Shown here: one piece after another, positions 32,989 to 52,241 of the stretch
Layout: the number at the start of each line of letters is the position of its first letter
How positions within the stretch are numbered: position 1 is the stretch's first letter
Assembly (NCBI GenBank): GCA_937924775.1
Contig: CALDUT010000007.1
Coordinates: forward strand, 1-64,000
Reading direction: 5' to 3'
Source of the DNA: an uncultured Gemmata sp.
GTDB taxonomy: Bacteria; Planctomycetota; Planctomycetia; Gemmatales; Gemmataceae
Length of the DNA stretch: 64,000 bases
Translations under genes and position numbers: made by a program
The notes under the pieces: generated by a model
Database searches by the model: none
Told to the model about the DNA's origin: nothing
The model's input: the letters and a program-made list of their open reading frames with translations, nothing else

Positions 32989-33681
32989 ATGACTGCCCCA
33001 GCGTTTCCCCCGAACCGGCGCCCGCAAGTGTCTTCCGCGTGGATCGGTGCCGGGCTGGTGATTGCCGCGATCGGGTTTGCCCTGCCGATGGTGGCCACCG
33101 ATCCGCAGCTGTGGTCCACGCCCACCCAGGAAGCCCCCTCCGCCTCGGGGGGGGGCCCACCCATCGCGGCCTCATCCCCACCGCGGGGGCCGACCTTATC
33201 GCCCGCCGCGGGTAAAACGCCGCTGCAGCCCATCAACCCACCTGCAGCCACTGGTATCGTCGCGTCCCTGGTGAAGTTCGGGATCGGATTGGTGGTGGTC
33301 TGCGGGCTGGGCATCTTCGTGGCCCGCTGGGTGCGGGCGAAGTCGCTACCGGCGAGGGGGGAAAGCCCCCTGACGGTGGTCGCCTCCCTGGACGTGGGCC
33401 TCAGTGTGCTGCATCTGGTGTGTGCTGGGGAACGCCGGTTGCTCGTCGGCACCGACGCGACGGGTGTGAAAACCCTGCTCGAATTGCCGGGGGCGGCACC
33501 GGAGCCGCTCCTTGCGCTGCCGGCGGCGGCCGCGCTCGAAGGGCCTTCCGCCGGACCTGGGGCAACCCCTCGCCCCGGGACTGCTCAGGCTTCTGCGTCC
33601 TCTGCCGCGTCCGGCCGCGATGAAATTGTGCAGCTTGTCCTACGCCTGGCCGACCGGACCCGGCCGCCGGCCTCGGCATGA
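32989..33681 (+). CDS. fliO: Flagellar biosynthetic protein FliO
   Basis: 230 residues. A first hydrophobic segment (IGAGLVIAAIGFALPMV) and a Pro/Ser-rich periplasmic stretch precede the main membrane helix (VKFGIGLVVVCGLGIFVARWV, about 90-115). The cytoplasmic FliO domain follows: ESPLTVVASLDVGLSVLHLVCAGERRLLVGTDATGVKTLLEL. FliO is a scaffold for assembly of the FliP ring. The low-complexity Ala/Gly/Pro tail is typical of the family. Called partly from position before fliP. Confidence 0.86.
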   Translation: MTAPAFPPNRRPQVSSAWIGAGLVIAAIGFALPMVATDPQLWSTPTQEAPSASGGGPPIAASSPPRGPTLSPAAGKTPLQPINPPAATGIVASLVKFGIGLVVVCGLGIFVARWVRAKSLPARGESPLTVVASLDVGLSVLHLVCAGERRLLVGTDATGVKTLLELPGAAPEPLLALPAAAALEGPSAGPGATPRPGTAQASASSAASGRDEIVQLVLRLADRTRPPASA

Positions 33682-45854: not shown

Positions 45855-46238
45855 TCATTGCTCGGGGAATTGCTGGGGAGAAAAGCCGACGTCGAGGATG
45901 CTACAGCCGGTGACGACATGCAACCCCCAGCGGCGGGCTTCGGCCAGTACCGCGGGGGCATCGGCTCCGGGGTTGAACCACACCTCGGCCGGGGCGCGGG
46001 CCGCGATCGCCGGGATCAGGGCTAAGCCAATCGCTGGGGGCACATAGAGTGTAACGCGATCCAATGGGCCCGCCGGCACCTCCGTGACCGACGCATATGC
46101 CGGCAGGCCCTCCACTTCAGCCGCCTGGGGCGTGACCGGATAAACCGTGTAGCCGGCCGCGCGGTAGGCCCGAACGGCTTTGTTCCCGAACTTTCGGCGA
46201 TCGGTACTGGCCCCGATCACGGCCACGGTACGAGCCAT
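45855..46238 (-). CDS. CoA-binding domain protein (YccU family)
   Basis: 127 residues, the usual length for the YccU/CoA_binding_2 family. Rossmann features: TVAVIGASTDRRKFGNKAVRAYRAAGYTVYPV, then the second half AEVWFNPGADAPAVLAEARRWGLHVVTGCSI. It binds CoA or a related nucleotide in the cytoplasm; the exact role of the family is not known. It is immediately upstream of lptD on the same strand, with 101 bases to the chosen lptD start. Confidence 0.9.
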   Translation of the reverse strand: MARTVAVIGASTDRRKFGNKAVRAYRAAGYTVYPVTPQAAEVEGLPAYASVTEVPAGPLDRVTLYVPPAIGLALIPAIAARAPAEVWFNPGADAPAVLAEARRWGLHVVTGCSILDVGFSPQQFPEQ

Positions 46239-46394
46239 CGGTAGGCTACAACGAGAGAGGGAAAAACAAGCGGCGGGCTCAAACCAACTTTCATCCCCAC
46301 GACGCGGGGGCTGGCGGCGACAGAATGAGTGGGGTACCGACTCCGGACCTCACCGATCCAGGATGCGGATTCCTCGGCCTGCGAACCGGCGGCC

Positions 46395-46613
46395 TCAACT
46401 CCGGGGGTTCGTCTCGTCCGGCTTGGCGATCATCGTTGGTACCGGGGCTTTGATCCCGTGGATCGCTTCGTAGACTTCTTGCCGGTGCACCGGAACATCT
46501 TTGGGCGCTTCAATACCCAACCGGACCTTGTCGCCGCGGATTTCGACAATAGTGATAACAATGTCGTTGTTAATCACAATCGACTCATTTTTTTTTCTGG
46601 ACAGCACAAGCAT
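46395..46613 (-). CDS. csrA: Translational regulator CsrA
   Basis: 72 residues with the full CsrA sequence pattern: [37 protein letters not shown] then the RNA-binding HRQEVYEAI. The key Leu4, Arg6, Glu and Arg-44-type contact positions are kept. It dimerises and binds GGA motifs at ribosome sites, often repressing flagellin and biofilm genes. The flagellar locus lies 6.5 kb away, making motility a plausible target. The FliW antagonist is not in the window. A second, longer CsrA paralogue is encoded at 49744-50124. Confidence 0.96.
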
Positions 46614-47061
46614 TGGTGTCTATCTTTCTTGGCGTAAGTGCGAGCATGAGTCGGTCGTCAATGATACCGGCTCCCTAATACAGGCCGCGGATTCCATTCC
46701 GGCATGGCCTTTCCCTTGATGGTCCCGCGGCGATGAGCTGCTACAGCGTTCGTCCGCGGGGGTGTGCCATCCCCGCACACCCTGCGCCGCTTCTCATCAT
46801 TCCCCACTGTAAAACGGGGCAAGTTGCGCCGTCAAGGAGCATTCTGCCGAAGAATGCAGAATTTTTGAACTTTTTGATTGACGCGGCTTTTTTCATGGAG
46901 ATTGTGAGAAGATTGCGCTGGAGCGTGACCAAGTCGTGGACGATCCAAGCGAATCACGCAGGGGGACCGCCTCCCCAGCGGCCCAGAACATCGGCTCTGC
47001 CCGCAGCTCCGCCCTACCGACGTGCCGTTCTCAATGGGGTTTACTGCTAGGAATTCACCGA
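46614..47061. other. Intergenic region upstream of csrA
   Basis: 448 bases. The part at 46840-46920 is A/T-rich. On the minus strand TTGACG (46835-46830) followed after 16 bases by TTTACA (46813-46808) is a possible csrA promoter with a leader of about 190 nt. No small gene or RNA is convincing; the plus-strand frame at 46733-47050 has no supporting features. Confidence 0.35.
46808..46835 (-). promoter_or_regulatory. Candidate promoter of csrA
   Basis: Minus-strand TTGACG (5 of 6 to TTGACA) at 46835-46830, spacer 16, TTTACA (3 of 6 to TATAAT) at 46813-46808. The -10 is weak. Confidence 0.25.
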
Positions 47062-48540
47062 TTACGGCAGCGGTACGTTCTCCAGCACAAACGGGACTTC
47101 CACCACCCAGGATCGCGTACCCATCACCACCAGTTGAGCTGGCAAGCCGGCGTTCTTCGCGTAAACGAGGGAGAATGTTTGGACGTACCGCTCATCGTTA
47201 TTCACGGTATCGAGGAAGCGGTGGGTGAATTGGGCGGGAATTTCGCTCCCGGTGGCATCGTGGAGCCGCACGGTCGGCCCACTGCTGGTTGGTTGCGGCG
47301 CTTCCGGCCAAATTCCCCCCGGATTACGGCCGCGCCGGGCATTCTGCAGCCACGGCGGGGGATACGCCAACTCCAGCTGTAAGGCGTGGTGGTCGCCGCG
47401 GGTGTGGAAGGCTTGAATGTTCAGTTGCACGTCGCCGGGGCCTTCGAAACGGTGGCCCACAGAGCGGGTGGGTTCCTTCACCGTGATGAGGGGCTGATTC
47501 GCTGCGGTGATTTCGCCGACTACCGCGCCTTCCAGGCGTTGAAGACGCTTGGCGCGCGGGGTGTCGAGCTTCAGCGATAGCGGCACAATCCGCGGATTGG
47601 GCAGGGTGGCGATGGGAATGATATGCCCGGTGGCATCGATACGAACTCCCCTCCGGGCCAGAAACGCTCCCCTGCCACCGGCGAAGGCCACCACCTCGTG
47701 ACCGAAGGCCCACTCCTCGCTCCCCAGGCGACAGGTGCCGCTGCCCGAACGGCCGGCTTCATCGATCAGTTTGTGGATTTTCACTGTGGCGACACCCTGC
47801 CAGGGCACACCCGGTGCCGGTGTAATGTCGCAACAGAGAGTCACCTCACCCCCCAACTGGATGCGATGTCCGGGGAACGCTGGTGGCAGCACCAGCACGC
47901 GCACGGCGGTGCGGCGATCGCCCAGGGGCCGGGGCGAGTGGCCGTCGTCATCGACCAGCACCATCGGTACGTTGTGGGCCGTTGGTACGATGGGCGGCAG
48001 AGCGTAGTGCCGGTTGGTTTTGGGCATTTTGGGGAGCTCGACATCGGGGCAGAATTGCTCCTGCAAGCCGGCGGCCCGACAGAAGGCGTCGAGGGCTTCC
48101 CAGACGGGCAGTTCCCCCGTTCGGAGCGTCACGCGGCGGAAAGGATCGGCCACTTGGCGAGCGTCGAGCGTCAGAGGCAGGCCGCTGCGGTGGCGGAAGT
48201 CGTTGAAGGCGACCCCCAGTGGCACGTTCTGATAGTCGAGCGCCAGCCGCGGGGCGGTCAAACGCTCGGCACTGTCGGCAGCACGCTGGAGTTTCTGGAG
48301 AATGGCCGCGGCTCGCAAGCGAATTTCTGGATCGTCCGACTTCAGGGCCGTTCGCAACGGCACGATCGCCGCCGGTCCGGCATTCTCCAGGTCGGCCGTG
48401 GCTTTCTCCCGGGTGCGGAAATCCTCGGAACCCAGTTGTTGAATCAGTTGTTGCACCAGTGGGGTCGGCTCCGGTGGCTGGCCCACTGCGGCACCGAGCG
48501 TCAATCCCAAAAGTCCCACAGTGCTGAGCAGCTTCTTCAT
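47062..48540 (-). CDS. Secreted HEAT-repeat-containing planctomycete protein
   Basis: 492 residues from the ATG at 48540 (GGAGG about 8 nt upstream; signal peptide MKKLLSTVGLLGLTLGAAVG). Residues about 25-75 form one or two HEAT-like repeats (LGSEDFRTREKATADLENAGPAAIVPL, DDPEIRLRAAAILQKLQ), a frequent opening in planctomycete exported proteins. Then comes a helical STN-like part (ALDYQNVPLGVAFNDFRHRSGLPLTLDARQV) and a beta-rich remainder. Periplasmic or surface; function unknown. Confidence 0.75.
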   Translation of the reverse strand: MKKLLSTVGLLGLTLGAAVGQPPEPTPLVQQLIQQLGSEDFRTREKATADLENAGPAAIVPLRTALKSDDPEIRLRAAAILQKLQRAADSAERLTAPRLALDYQNVPLGVAFNDFRHRSGLPLTLDARQVADPFRRVTLRTGELPVWEALDAFCRAAGLQEQFCPDVELPKMPKTNRHYALPPIVPTAHNVPMVLVDDDGHSPRPLGDRRTAVRVLVLPPAFPGHRIQLGGEVTLCCDITPAPGVPWQGVATVKIHKLIDEAGRSGSGTCRLGSEEWAFGHEVVAFAGGRGAFLARRGVRIDATGHIIPIATLPNPRIVPLSLKLDTPRAKRLQRLEGAVVGEITAANQPLITVKEPTRSVGHRFEGPGDVQLNIQAFHTRGDHHALQLELAYPPPWLQNARRGRNPGGIWPEAPQPTSSGPTVRLHDATGSEIPAQFTHRFLDTVNNDERYVQTFSLVYAKNAGLPAQLVVMGTRSWVVEVPFVLENVPLP

Positions 48541-48767
48541 GATGGGCCTCCAGCGATGCCGGGAGAACGCTTCCATCCTAATGGCCGCGAAAACGCGGGG
48601 CCATATGCTGGAACGTTCGGGACATCCGGTTTGTGAGAATTAATTCCGCGAAAAAAGCCCAATCGCCACAGTCCGTTCGTTTGCTGCCGGCCGATAGCAT
48701 CGCGTCTCCAGTCGGGATGGCCAGCCTTTCCATTTTCTTGTGTCCACTTTCTTGTGCGGTGGGGCGG

Positions 48768-49511
48768 TCATTTCCCCGGGGCTTTGGCTTCGGCGATGTA
48801 TTTTTCGGGATGGGCGCGGAACTCGTCGCGGCAGCCAGAACAGCACACAGAGTACGTCTGGCCCTTGTAAACCACCGTCTGGGCGCCCCGGCCGCCGCTG
48901 ACGATACATTCGGGCCCTTGGGGTACTTAGGCGAAGGGTTCACCGTCTTGGGTGGCTCCCACTTGGTATTTTTTCGTGAAGGCTACCGTGGTATGGGCCG
49001 GCCGGTCTTCCAACCGGTACAGGTAGCGGTTGGGGTGGAGCAAGCTGAAGACGAGCCGTTGCTCTTCTGCCGTAGGGCCATCGGTCCGCGTCAGCGTCAG
49101 GACACGCAGTTTGGTGTCGTAGCTGCCGGTGAAGGTGGCCGTGGAGCGATCGGTACAGCTGAGGATAACAGGGAAGCGCGGGTCGGCGGCCGGACCCGCG
49201 GACATGAAGCGGAGGTCCCCGTGGGTGAAGTGCTTACTACCGGTGAAGCGGACGGGCAGCCACGCGTCGGCCTCCTGGAACTTCCATTCCCAGATGATTT
49301 TTTCTTTCCACGCTCCCGCGGTGCGTTCGTCCTTAGTGCCTTCGGGGGTTCCGCGGCCCTTCCACGAACCGATCAACCCCTGCAACGGTTGGAGTACTTC
49401 TTTGGCCGTCGTTGGCACAGATGAGCCTACGTGACACACCGGAATTGTATCAAAATTGAACATGGCCTGTTCAATTGTTGCACAGATCACCACAAGAACT
49501 GCGCGTCACAT
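48768..49511 (-). pseudogene. Broken gene for a DUF1579-like/YHS-domain secreted protein with in-frame stops
   Basis: Reading from a well-placed ATG (49511-49509, GGAGG 7 bases upstream) the frame meets TGA as codon 2, then runs open for 190-odd codons: a lipocalin/DUF1579-like part (LQPLQGLIGSWKGRGTPEGTKD, WKEKIIWEWKF, ...FTKKYQVGATQDGEPFA). TAA follows at 48929-48927. Without any frame change the sequence continues for 52 codons as a good YHS-type metal-binding domain (PECIVSGGRGAQTVVYKG, YSVCCSGCRDEF, HPEKYIAEA) ending with TGA at 48770-48768. Planctomycete relatives, as I recall them, carry both parts in one protein. The YHS part has no start codon of its own. The middle piece could still be made from GTG at 49493. 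Most likely a decaying gene; readthrough or base errors are alternatives. Confidence 0.68.
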
Positions 49512-49743
49512 GGTGCTACCTCCAGAGCCAATGCTGCTCTTATTACGACGCGGGCGCGGAGGGATTACAACTGGAATCTCCCAAAATCGAGAGGACTGTT
49601 TGGGCGGAGAAGGAGCGGAGGCGATGGGCTGGGGGGCAAAGGAGAGAACTACAATACATCCTTCCGCAGCGCTTCCTCTGCGGAAGGATGGAGTCATAAG
49701 ACCGGTGAACGGATAACCAACCGCCGCAGTGTTCGACCAACGC

Positions 49744-50124
49744 TCAGCGGGGTTTGCGGGGCAACCGCGTGGGGGCCGGTGGTGTCGCAGGGCGATGATG
49801 CGGAGCCGCCGCGGGGGGTTCGGTCGCGGCCACGCCGGCGTTGGGGCGAGCTGCGGCTTCTGGGCTGACCGGGTTGACCAGGAGGGCTGTATCGGGGCCG
49901 TGAACGACGGAAGTACTTTGAGAATCACATGTTGTGACGCCCAGAGCCGCGAGGACATCGGCCGATTGCTCGATGCGATCGTGAATTTCTTTCCGGTCGA
50001 TGCGAATTTCCGGCGGGGCCTCAATGCCTAGTTTGACACGACCGGGCCCGACACTGACGACAGTGATTTTGATATTATGGCCGATAATGACGGATTCGCT
50101 CGGACGACGGGTGAGTACCAGCAT
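49744..50124 (-). CDS. csrA: CsrA paralogue with a long disordered C-terminal tail
   Basis: 126 residues from the ATG at 50124, with AGGAGGGA about 6 nt upstream. Residues 1-60 are CsrA: MLVLTRRPSESVIIGHNIKITVVSVGPGRVKLGIEAPPEIRIDRKEIHDRI. The remaining 65 or so residues are Ala/Pro/Thr-rich and end in basic PTRLPRKPR, unlike ordinary CsrA (about 60-75 residues). Its own leader contains several GGA triplets, including one in the ribosome site, so autoregulation is possible. Second CsrA of this window. Confidence 0.9.
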   Translation of the reverse strand: MLVLTRRPSESVIIGHNIKITVVSVGPGRVKLGIEAPPEIRIDRKEIHDRIEQSADVLAALGVTTCDSQSTSVVHGPDTALLVNPVSPEAAARPNAGVAATEPPAAAPHHRPATPPAPTRLPRKPR

Positions 50125-50251
50125 GAGATGTCCCTCCTGGATGGTGCCGGGGAAAGTAGGAAGTGGCTCCCGCGGCGATCCTGTTATTGATGGATTGTAC
50201 AAGCATCCCGAACCGATCTTTCAGTTATTTTTCATTTTTCTTCAAGTTGGG

Positions 50252-50268
50252 CTTCGGAAAGTCCGAAG
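50252..50268 (-). promoter_or_regulatory. Stem-loop in the leader of the csrA paralogue
   Basis: CTTCGGA-loop of 3-TCCGAAG gives a perfect 7-base-pair stem about 130 nt before the start codon at 50124. It may be part of a regulatory leader; no T-run follows on the minus strand. Confidence 0.3.
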
Positions 50269-50441
50269 ACCGACCTGAATAGAACCGCGATCGGCTGTCG
50301 GTTACAACAACACTAAAATTTAGCAATTTTGGGGCCAAATTCCGTAAAGGCGTCAAAAATGACCATAGAGGCGAAAGAAACGCCAATAACAGCGCTTTTT
50401 AGCGCCGTCGGGGGGAATTTTCCGCAAACTTTGTTGTGAGC

Positions 50442-50468
50442 CTAATAGAGGCAAGTGTCGCGTGTCAA
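50442..50468 (-). promoter_or_regulatory. Candidate promoter of the csrA paralogue
   Basis: Minus-strand TTGACA (6 of 6) at 50468-50463, then TATTAG (4 of 6) at 50447-50442 after a short 15-base spacer. It would give a leader of roughly 310 nt. Confidence 0.3.
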
Positions 50469-50558
50469 GTCCGTTTTTTGCAATCCGCGGCGCGAGGGGG
50501 TGTGTCAGAATGTCCAGTCGATGGTAAGACCGCGAGGAGGCGTGCAAAGGTAGATGGT

Positions 50559-50596
50559 GGCGGCCGGGACGGCTCCAACACGTGGTTCCGGCCGCC
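50559..50596 (-). terminator. Inverted repeat after the thioredoxin-like gene
   Basis: GGCGGCCGG and CCGGCCGCC arms (9 base pairs) around a 20-base loop, starting 13 bases beyond the stop at 50610. No T-run follows, so termination is only suggested. Confidence 0.33.
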
Positions 50597-50609
50597 TCTG
50601 GAACGCTGG

Positions 50610-51164
50610 TCACTTCACAATCTTGGCCACATCCTTGACGATGGCGTCAATTGCCTTCTCGCTCAGTTGGCCTTTGGCGAAGCAGTGGTTGGCCTTCACA
50701 ATGCGATCGACATAGAGAATGACCGTCACATCCGCTTCGGGATTGAGGTTGTACTTAGCGGGGATCGGGTCTTCCTTGTCTTCGATGGCCAGGATGGTGG
50801 CTTTCAGGTTGGCTTTCTGGGCGGCGTCTTTCAACTGCGGGATGAGCTTTTCTTTATTGCCCATGAAGATGGCGAAGCTGTGCATTTCCGCTTTGGCGTT
50901 TTTGACGGTTTCGGCATCGATCGCCTGGATGAGTTTGTGAGTCATGGCGTCGTCGCCGCGGCGGGCGAAGATCATGACCACGGGGCTATCACCGGCTTTG
51001 CAGTACAGGCAGGCACATTGGCCAGCGTCTTCCCCCGTGACGTTGTAGGGGTGGAAGGCCCCGGGCACCTTATCCCCAGGTTGCGGGCCGGATTGGAGAT
51101 CGGCGGCCGCCGCTATGCCACCCAGACCCAGGGTCATCGTAATAACCCACAGTTGGCGAATCAT
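50610..51164 (-). CDS. Secreted thioredoxin-like-fold protein
   Basis: 184 residues from the ATG at 51164, with AGGAG about 9 nt upstream. Signal peptide MIRQLWVITMTLGLGGIAAA. The mature part opens GPQPGDKVPGAFHPYNVTGEDAGQCACLYCKAGDSPVVMIFAR, a redoxin-like beginning with Cys in a CACLYC cluster instead of a plain CxxC. It continues with alternating strands and helices (AEMHSFAIFMGN, KATILAIED, VTVILYVDRIVKANHCF). Planctomycete genomes carry several such proteins. Redox role likely, substrate unknown. Confidence 0.75.
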   Translation of the reverse strand: MIRQLWVITMTLGLGGIAAAADLQSGPQPGDKVPGAFHPYNVTGEDAGQCACLYCKAGDSPVVMIFARRGDDAMTHKLIQAIDAETVKNAKAEMHSFAIFMGNKEKLIPQLKDAAQKANLKATILAIEDKEDPIPAKYNLNPEADVTVILYVDRIVKANHCFAKGQLSEKAIDAIVKDVAKIVK

Positions 51165-51371
51165 CAGTGTCGTCTCCTGTGAAGAATCGAAAAACCGCCG
51201 GGAACACCCAACTACCATCCCGGCGATATATCGTCAGACGTTGGGGGGCGAGAGTTTATTCAGGCCCGACGTGGGCGTTGAGGGGAAGAACCGCCCTCTC
51301 CCGAGCCGTTCGCGGCCCGGGAGCTAGGCGGGGGGAGTTGGTCTTAGGAAGTTCCCCCTTGTGCCGCGGGC

Positions 51372-52241
51372 TTATTTCTTCTTTTCAGGCATAATCCACA
51401 GGTGCAGCATGTATTCGTCGCCATCGGCCCCAGTGACAACAATCGATTTGTCCGGCTTCCAATCGCCCATCACAAAGCGGTGCGAGACGATCCGTGTACC
51501 GGGTTTGAGTTGCTTTTCGAGGATCGGCCGTAGCAAGTTGTTGAATTCGTTCCCCATGTACAAGAAGATGACCGTCGCTTCGCTGTAGTCACGGTCTTTG
51601 AGGGCATCGCCGTGGATGATGGTGATCTGCTTATCTAAGCCAGCATTTTTGATGGCTTCCCGGGCTTCTTCGACTTTCTTTTCGTCCAATTCGATGCCGA
51701 CGGCTTTTTCAGCACCCTTTTTGACGGCGGCAATCAGCACGCGACCATCACCAGGGCCGGGTTCGTAGACGATATCGCCCTTTTTCACCCCCGCCAGCTT
51801 GATCATTTCTTCGACAATATCATCGGGCGTGGGCACCCAGCGAATCACGGCTTTGTCGGGGTTTTTCGGGTCTTCCTTGCTCAGATCGGCGATGATGTCG
51901 TCCCCGCCTTTGAATTCGATGGACTTGGTGCGGGTCATTTTGGTGTAATTGTTTGGCTCCCAGCGGACTTCGAAGGAATATTCGTAGAGCTTGCCGACTT
52001 CCAATTCAGGGGTGACGAATTCGCGCTCCTTGCCGGTCAGCTTGGTTTCTTTGCCTTCGATCAGCAGCAGGGCATCGTCTTGGGGGACAATGACTTTCAG
52101 CTTCGATTTGGCGAGTTTCTTGGCGGGGTCCTTCTTGTCTTTGCCAGGTTGAGCGCTGACCGACAGCGACGACAACCCCCCACTGACCATAAAGGCCAGA
52201 ACCAGCGCCGCAGCGCGGCTCGTGCGTACAGTAAACATCAT
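51372..52241 (-). CDS. Exported TIGR03000-like domain fused to a SAM-methyltransferase-like domain
   Basis: 289 residues from the ATG at 52241; the next codon is also ATG and sits at a better distance from GAGGTG, so either may be used. Signal peptide MFTVRTSRAAALVLAFMVSGGLSSLSVSA. First domain (about 45-115; LLIEGKETKLTGKEREFVTPEL, YEYSFEVRWE) matches the small planctomycete TIGR03000 type. The second domain (about 130-289) is a class I methyltransferase: EPGPGDGRVLIAAVKKGAEKAVGIELD, ITIIHGDALKD, TVIFLYMG. SAM is not expected outside the cytoplasm, so the location or activity is puzzling. Confidence 0.8.
   Translation of the reverse strand: MMFTVRTSRAAALVLAFMVSGGLSSLSVSAQPGKDKKDPAKKLAKSKLKVIVPQDDALLLIEGKETKLTGKEREFVTPELEVGKLYEYSFEVRWEPNNYTKMTRTKSIEFKGGDDIIADLSKEDPKNPDKAVIRWVPTPDDIVEEMIKLAGVKKGDIVYEPGPGDGRVLIAAVKKGAEKAVGIELDEKKVEEAREAIKNAGLDKQITIIHGDALKDRDYSEATVIFLYMGNEFNNLLRPILEKQLKPGTRIVSHRFVMGDWKPDKSIVVTGADGDEYMLHLWIMPEKKK

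What the first reader, a model, noticed from the sequence alone, without database searches (positions are those of the whole stretch)
48768..49511. YHS-domain gene interrupted by two in-frame stops without frameshift
A perfect ribosome site and ATG are followed at once by TGA; the frame then codes a full DUF1579-like domain, hits TAA, and goes on in the same frame as an intact YHS-type Cys-rich domain. The sequence downstream of the TAA is still protein-like, so the stop is recent, programmed for readthrough, or a base error. The ATG-TGA pair could also be a start-stop regulatory element with translation from a downstream GTG.
Basis: partly seen in the sequence, partly recalled or inferred. 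Interest (0 to 1): 0.6.

Follow-up and report, generated by a model that had tools for sequence, protein, structure and literature searches.

The report
Recently broken two-domain planctomycete gene
A gene that its relatives carry as one intact two-part protein has picked up two stop codons in this bacterium and is most likely a young dead gene, which is an ordinary event in bacterial genomes.

Summary
The DNA observation is right. On the minus strand a GGAGG site and ATG (49511) are followed at once by TGA; the frame is then open to TAA (48929-48927) and runs on as a YHS domain to TGA (48768). The first part is not DUF1579 by Pfam; its predicted fold is a nitrobindin-like beta-barrel. The nearest relative found, G012 (Gemmata sp. 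SKYG68 MAG), has the gene in the same place as one intact chain, and so do the 29 best homologue loci; 0 of 80 loci of an overlapping second collection have an in-frame stop in the match. Of 115 ORF pairs compared with G012, only this one has a stop well inside the frame with constrained codons on both sides. dN/dS is 0.16 before and 0.09 after the TAA, so the frame was long under selection. Amino-acid changes are now in excess on this lineage (18:6 against 40:48 in four neighbours, p=0.012), though other tests are weaker. Best reading: a recently inactivated gene. Programmed readthrough and reinitiation are unlikely; base error is not excluded. Interest low.

The parts
49519..49523 (-). Shine-Dalgarno-like GGAGG, 7 bases before the ATG
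   Evidence: sequence
49509..49511 (-). ATG, aligned with the start codon taken for the intact orthologue in G012
49506..49508 (-). in-frame TGA as second codon (an Arg codon in G012)
48942..49409 (-). first part: predicted nitrobindin-like beta-barrel (residues 35-190 in the orthologue's numbering)
   Evidence: AlphaFold2 model of the G012 orthologue, mean pLDDT 89.8; Foldseek and VIA-align
48927..48929 (-). in-frame TAA in the linker between the two domains, at a position that varies among relatives
48795..48878 (-). YHS domain match (PF04945)
   Evidence: (E=1.1e-8)
48768..48770 (-). final stop TGA
49491..49493 (-). GTG, codon 7: nearest in-frame start after the TGA; no Shine-Dalgarno-like stretch before it by eye
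49461..49463 (-). ATG, codon 17: next in-frame ATG; only a short AGG before it
49539..49551 (-). GCGTCGTAATAAG leader element, identical in G012

Best explanation
This is a recently inactivated gene (a young pseudogene). Its ancestor coded one protein with a hydrophobic start peptide, a nitrobindin-like barrel, a short linker and a C-terminal YHS domain, as the relatives still do. In this lineage two nonsense changes arose. The TGA at codon 2 stops nearly every ribosome after one residue, and the TAA in the linker would cut off the YHS domain in any product begun further downstream. Shown: the intact relatives, the two stops, past selection on both sides of the TAA, an excess of amino-acid changes on this lineage. 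Inferred: that the stops are real in the living population, that no functional protein is made, which stop came first, and that the ancestral protein is exported or anchored in a membrane.
For: Syntenic orthologue intact in G012. The 29 best other loci carry both domains in one chain; 0 of 80 loci kept from a second, overlapping collection have an in-frame stop in the best match. Of 115 ORF pairs compared, this is the only one with a stop well inside the frame between stretches of constrained codons. Pairwise dN/dS with G012: 0.156 before, 0.093 after the TAA; 30 other syntenic pairs range from 0.024 to 0.354, one antisense frame gives 0.855. Codon model: omega 0.149 on this branch, 0.043 on G012, 0.054 elsewhere; omega=1 over the whole branch rejected (nominal p=0.028). 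Polarised amino-acid changes 18 (here) to 6 (G012), against 40 to 48 in four neighbours, Fisher p=0.012. At sites conserved in 90% of the others this copy departs at 7 of 51, other same-genus copies at 0 to 2. Simulated unconstrained change gives a mean of 1.3 stops at 0.05 and 2.5 at 0.1 changes per site, against a pairwise dS of 0.91. No GGAGG-like stretch at the in-frame starts after either stop (by eye). An intact paralogue (238-residue frame, 33% identity) lies at G000:C10:80173-80640 and might ease the loss.
Against: The frame has no frameshift and only two stops, so it was under selection until recently, or still is in part. Omega on this branch does not differ significantly from G012 (p=0.19); G012 and this copy together already differ from the rest (p=0.043). 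Other ways of polarising give weaker asymmetry (20:9 p=0.06; 16:6 p=0.05; 13:7 p=0.26; 7:2 p=0.18). Some distant intact copies depart from conserved sites as often as this one (up to 9). The TAA lies at the domain border, as a useful truncation would. No second strain of this species was found: the genus search gave G012, at 75% DNA identity, as the nearest of 18 others.
Confidence: 0.84

Rival explanations
1. Base or assembly error: the living bacterium has an intact gene and one or both stops are faults of a draft assembly or a mixed-strain consensus.
For: The genome is a 27-contig draft; the rest of the frame looks recently selected.
Against: Two separate faults, both stops, in one 744-base gene, while none of the other 114 ORF pairs shows a comparable stop (frameshifts were not tested there). 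The excess of amino-acid changes on this lineage is not explained by two faulty bases.
Confidence: 0.07
2. Gene remodelling: a shorter protein, the barrel alone, is made from an internal start (GTG 49493 or ATG 49463), perhaps by termination-reinitiation after ATG-TGA, and ends at the TAA.
For: The TAA falls in the linker and leaves the barrel whole. Termination-reinitiation at AUGUGA is shown in E. coli (PMC9841429, passages). The overlapping GTG frame here runs 12 codons to a TGA at 49473, 7 bases before the in-frame ATG 49463.
Against: No GGAGG-like stretch at the internal starts (only AGG before ATG 49463); the start peptide would be lost; no relative examined shows this form. The codons after the TAA look no less constrained than those before it, so the YHS part was not discarded long ago. 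Conserved barrel residues (A39, F43, P104, L115) are also changed.
Confidence: 0.06
3. Programmed readthrough of TGA and TAA yields the full protein under some condition.
For: The frame and its constraint run through both stops.
Against: Both sites are sense codons in the nearest relative and no stop is conserved in any relative examined. Two readthrough events, one at codon 2 and one at a TAA, would be needed; no Rfam family reaches its gathering score in 46000-51500.
Confidence: 0.02

Closest known systems
Intact orthologue in Gemmata sp. SKYG68 (G012:C3:7842-8591)
   Same: same neighbourhood, same two domains, 76% protein identity over the frame
   Different: no stops; one 249-residue chain
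Young bacterial pseudogenes with nonsense changes (general kind; review PMC11078800 seen as a search listing only)
   Same: few disabling changes, former selection still visible, intact copies in relatives
   Different: nothing that sets it apart in kind
AUGUGA termination-reinitiation sites (E. coli reporters; GUGUGA of narQ; PMC9841429, passages read)
   Same: AUGUGA after a strong Shine-Dalgarno sequence
   Different: here the overlapping GTG frame codes only 12 residues and is not the domain frame; not present in G012
Nitrobindin / THAP4-like heme-binding barrel (PDB 2a13, 3ia8, 2fr2)
   Same: fold of the first part, Z 14.2-15.2, rmsd 3.6-4.0, 141-143 residues aligned
   Different: 14-18% identity, no Pfam match above cut-off, fused to YHS; no His among the invariant or nearly invariant columns

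Membership tests
pseudogene | disabling changes in a frame that is intact in relatives | tested here: met
pseudogene | relaxed selection on the broken lineage | tested here: inconclusive
   excess of changes p=0.012, but branch omega difference p=0.19 and weaker asymmetry
pseudogene | no functional product | not testable with these tools
   needs ribosome profiling or proteomics
YHS domain (PF04945) | profile match above the curated cut-off | tested here: met
   35.4 bits against 30.3
   0 families at E<=1 for the window's part; not listed for 8 orthologues
nitrobindin / THAP4 heme-binding barrel | beta-barrel fold | tested here: met
   Foldseek E 2.7e-7; 2a13 Z 15.2, rmsd 3.6, 141 aligned; the model is of the G012 orthologue
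nitrobindin / THAP4 heme-binding barrel | heme-binding histidine | tested here: inconclusive
   no His among invariant or nearly invariant columns of 42 sequences; ligand position not mapped
programmed stop-codon readthrough | stop conserved among relatives with the frame kept beyond it | tested here: not met
AUGUGA start-stop reinitiation | the overlapping GTG opens the main frame | tested here: not met
   GTG frame ends after 12 codons

The most novel reading that the evidence does not exclude
A fused barrel-YHS protein with a hydrophobic start peptide is being remodelled in this lineage into a cytosolic single-domain barrel. ATG-TGA acts as a one-codon leader that feeds reinitiation at an internal start, and a TAA placed at the domain border releases the barrel, with rare readthrough giving the fusion.
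Probability: 0.05. Interest if true: 0.45.

Novelty: new member of a known kind. Interest (0 to 1): 0.12.

Why it matters
Mainly for annotation: a gene caller may report a 188-residue protein from GTG 49493 (the ORF listed) and miss that it is a broken two-domain gene. If the remodelling reading were true, it would show a domain fusion being undone by stop codons alone. The intact family (nitrobindin-like barrel fused to YHS, in the planctomycete loci fetched here) may deserve study in its own right; the papers listed by three searches (1, 0 and 6 of 10 listed) do not describe it in title or opening abstract.

Tried and rejected
DUF1579 membership: no Pfam support. A second relative with a stop at the same place: G020:C216, flagged with one TAA, has its contig end there, and what remains runs unbroken through the end of the barrel and the YHS part. 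In one search, 63 of 80 passed my strict motif; the other 17 were printed and show the YHS part in a looser form. One search kept 80 of 110 relatives; the 30 weaker ones were not seen. That collection overlaps with the genomes and may leave out records very near the window's genome.

Flagged stops (10 of 115 ORF pairs, at least 55% identity and 60% coverage, stops at least 10 codons from the alignment ends; some pairs are antisense frames; frameshifts not tested) were checked: besides this gene, five lie in the first 9-34 codons of the alignment with no clear constraint before them (short stretches, noisy), two vanish on realignment, one (C10 stretch 50680, codon 19) lies in the overlap with the preceding ORF and does show constraint before it, one frame has more amino-acid than silent change on both sides. 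The reverse comparison flagged 5 of 114 pairs in G012; these were not followed up. First codon-model script failed numerically and was replaced (10 of 30 sequences; first 35 codons left out, the TAA masked, columns with fewer than 6 sequences dropped). The relative-rate control could use only 4 neighbours, those with outgroup copies in the stretches fetched. Rfam: no match at gathering score in 46000-51500. The YHS part was not folded alone, so says little about it. Literature searches; only PMC9841429 was opened (passages), all others seen as listings.

Full report
Observation. GGAGG (49523-49519) and ATG (49511) are followed by TGA; the frame is then open to TAA at 48929-48927 and continues, without frameshift, through a YHS domain to TGA at 48768. 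Pfam finds YHS in the last part (E=1.1e-8) and nothing in the first. The label DUF1579 is not supported.

What it is. The first part matches 50 of 59 genomes searched, own genome included. The nearest is G012 (74% identity). Its contig has the same length (35794) as a contig of Gemmata sp. SKYG68, which codes a protein 100% identical to the G012 one. There the gene, in the same order of genes over window 22963-57125, is one intact chain of 249 residues. The 29 best-scoring other loci carry both domains in one frame. In a second collection that overlaps the first, 0 of 80 kept loci have an in-frame stop within the best match; one of them is probably split by a frame change. AlphaFold2 on the G012 protein with 42 sequences (mean pLDDT 89.8) gives a beta-barrel at residues 35-190 whose best solved matches are nitrobindins and the spirocyclases OlmO and OssO. 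The TAA falls in the linker between barrel and YHS.

Is the genome full of such cases? Not in the part examined. I compared stretches of three G012 contigs (C3, C43, first 60 kb of C7) with stretches of three G000 contigs: 115 ORF pairs, 10 flagged for a stop inside the alignment. On inspection only the gene in question has constrained codons on both sides of a stop well inside the frame; one other has 19 constrained codons before its stop, in an overlap with the preceding ORF. Frameshifts were not tested.

When did it break? Pairwise dN/dS with G012 is 0.156 before the TAA and 0.093 after it, with a pairwise dS of 0.91 over the whole gene. So both parts were selected for most of the time since the split from G012. 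A codon model on 10 sequences gives omega 0.149 on this branch against 0.043 (G012) and 0.054 (others). Omega=1 over the branch is rejected (nominal p=0.028; before the TAA alone p=0.044; after it alone, 54 codons, p=0.18), but this branch and G012 do not differ significantly (p=0.19). Polarised amino-acid changes are 18 here to 6 in G012, against 40 to 48 in four neighbours (Fisher p=0.012). At 52 sites conserved in at least 90% of 28 other sequences this copy departs 8 times and G012 twice, one of them shared; left out one at a time, the 15 other same-genus copies depart 0 to 2 times, while some distant intact copies depart up to 9 times. Other polarisation rules point the same way with p from 0.05 to 0.26. 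A simulation of unconstrained change gives a mean of 1.3 stops at 0.05 and 2.5 at 0.1 changes per site. Set against half the pairwise dS, that suggests loss in the last tenth to fifth of the branch; this age is an inference.

Could it still work? The YHS part has no start before its first Cys; the first in-frame GTG after the TAA is at 48875, inside the domain. For the barrel, in-frame starts exist at GTG 49493 and ATG 49463, without a GGAGG-like stretch (only AGG before the ATG), and a product from there would lack the start peptide. Termination-reinitiation at AUGUGA is shown in E. coli (PMC9841429, passages read), but there the overlapping GTG opens the main frame; here it runs 12 codons to a TGA. 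A chain of reinitiation from there to ATG 49463 is conceivable and untested.

Verdict. A young pseudogene of a fused nitrobindin-like/YHS protein is the best account (0.84). Base error (0.07), remodelling to a shorter protein (0.06) and programmed readthrough (0.02) remain open. The finding is a correct observation of an ordinary event.

Noticed in passing
49657-49690: A 34-base hairpin (13-pair stem, 8-base loop) downstream of a CsrA-like gene is identical in G012 while the flanks have diverged widely; its 32-base core pattern occurs at one place in each of the two genomes searched. Possibly the terminator of that gene (terminator-like), though the tail is weak; the loop holds AGGAAG.
   Followed up: partly
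46395-46613 and 49744-50202: Two CsrA-like genes about 3 kb apart, the second with a long tail (ORFs; the name is recalled from the sequence, no family search was run).
   Followed up: no
L121:966-1606 (G029:C1386): A related barrel-YHS gene split by a frame change in another draft genome; lesion or assembly fault not decided.
   Followed up: partly
32989-33666: Lowest protein identity to G012 among the syntenic pairs (51%, dN/dS 0.34).
   Followed up: no
49539-49551: Leader element GCGTCGTAATAAG identical in G012; a similar GCGTCGTCATTCCGGAGAACC stretch turned up before the gene in four other loci (L006, L007, L008, L009), perhaps a shared promoter.
   Followed up: partly
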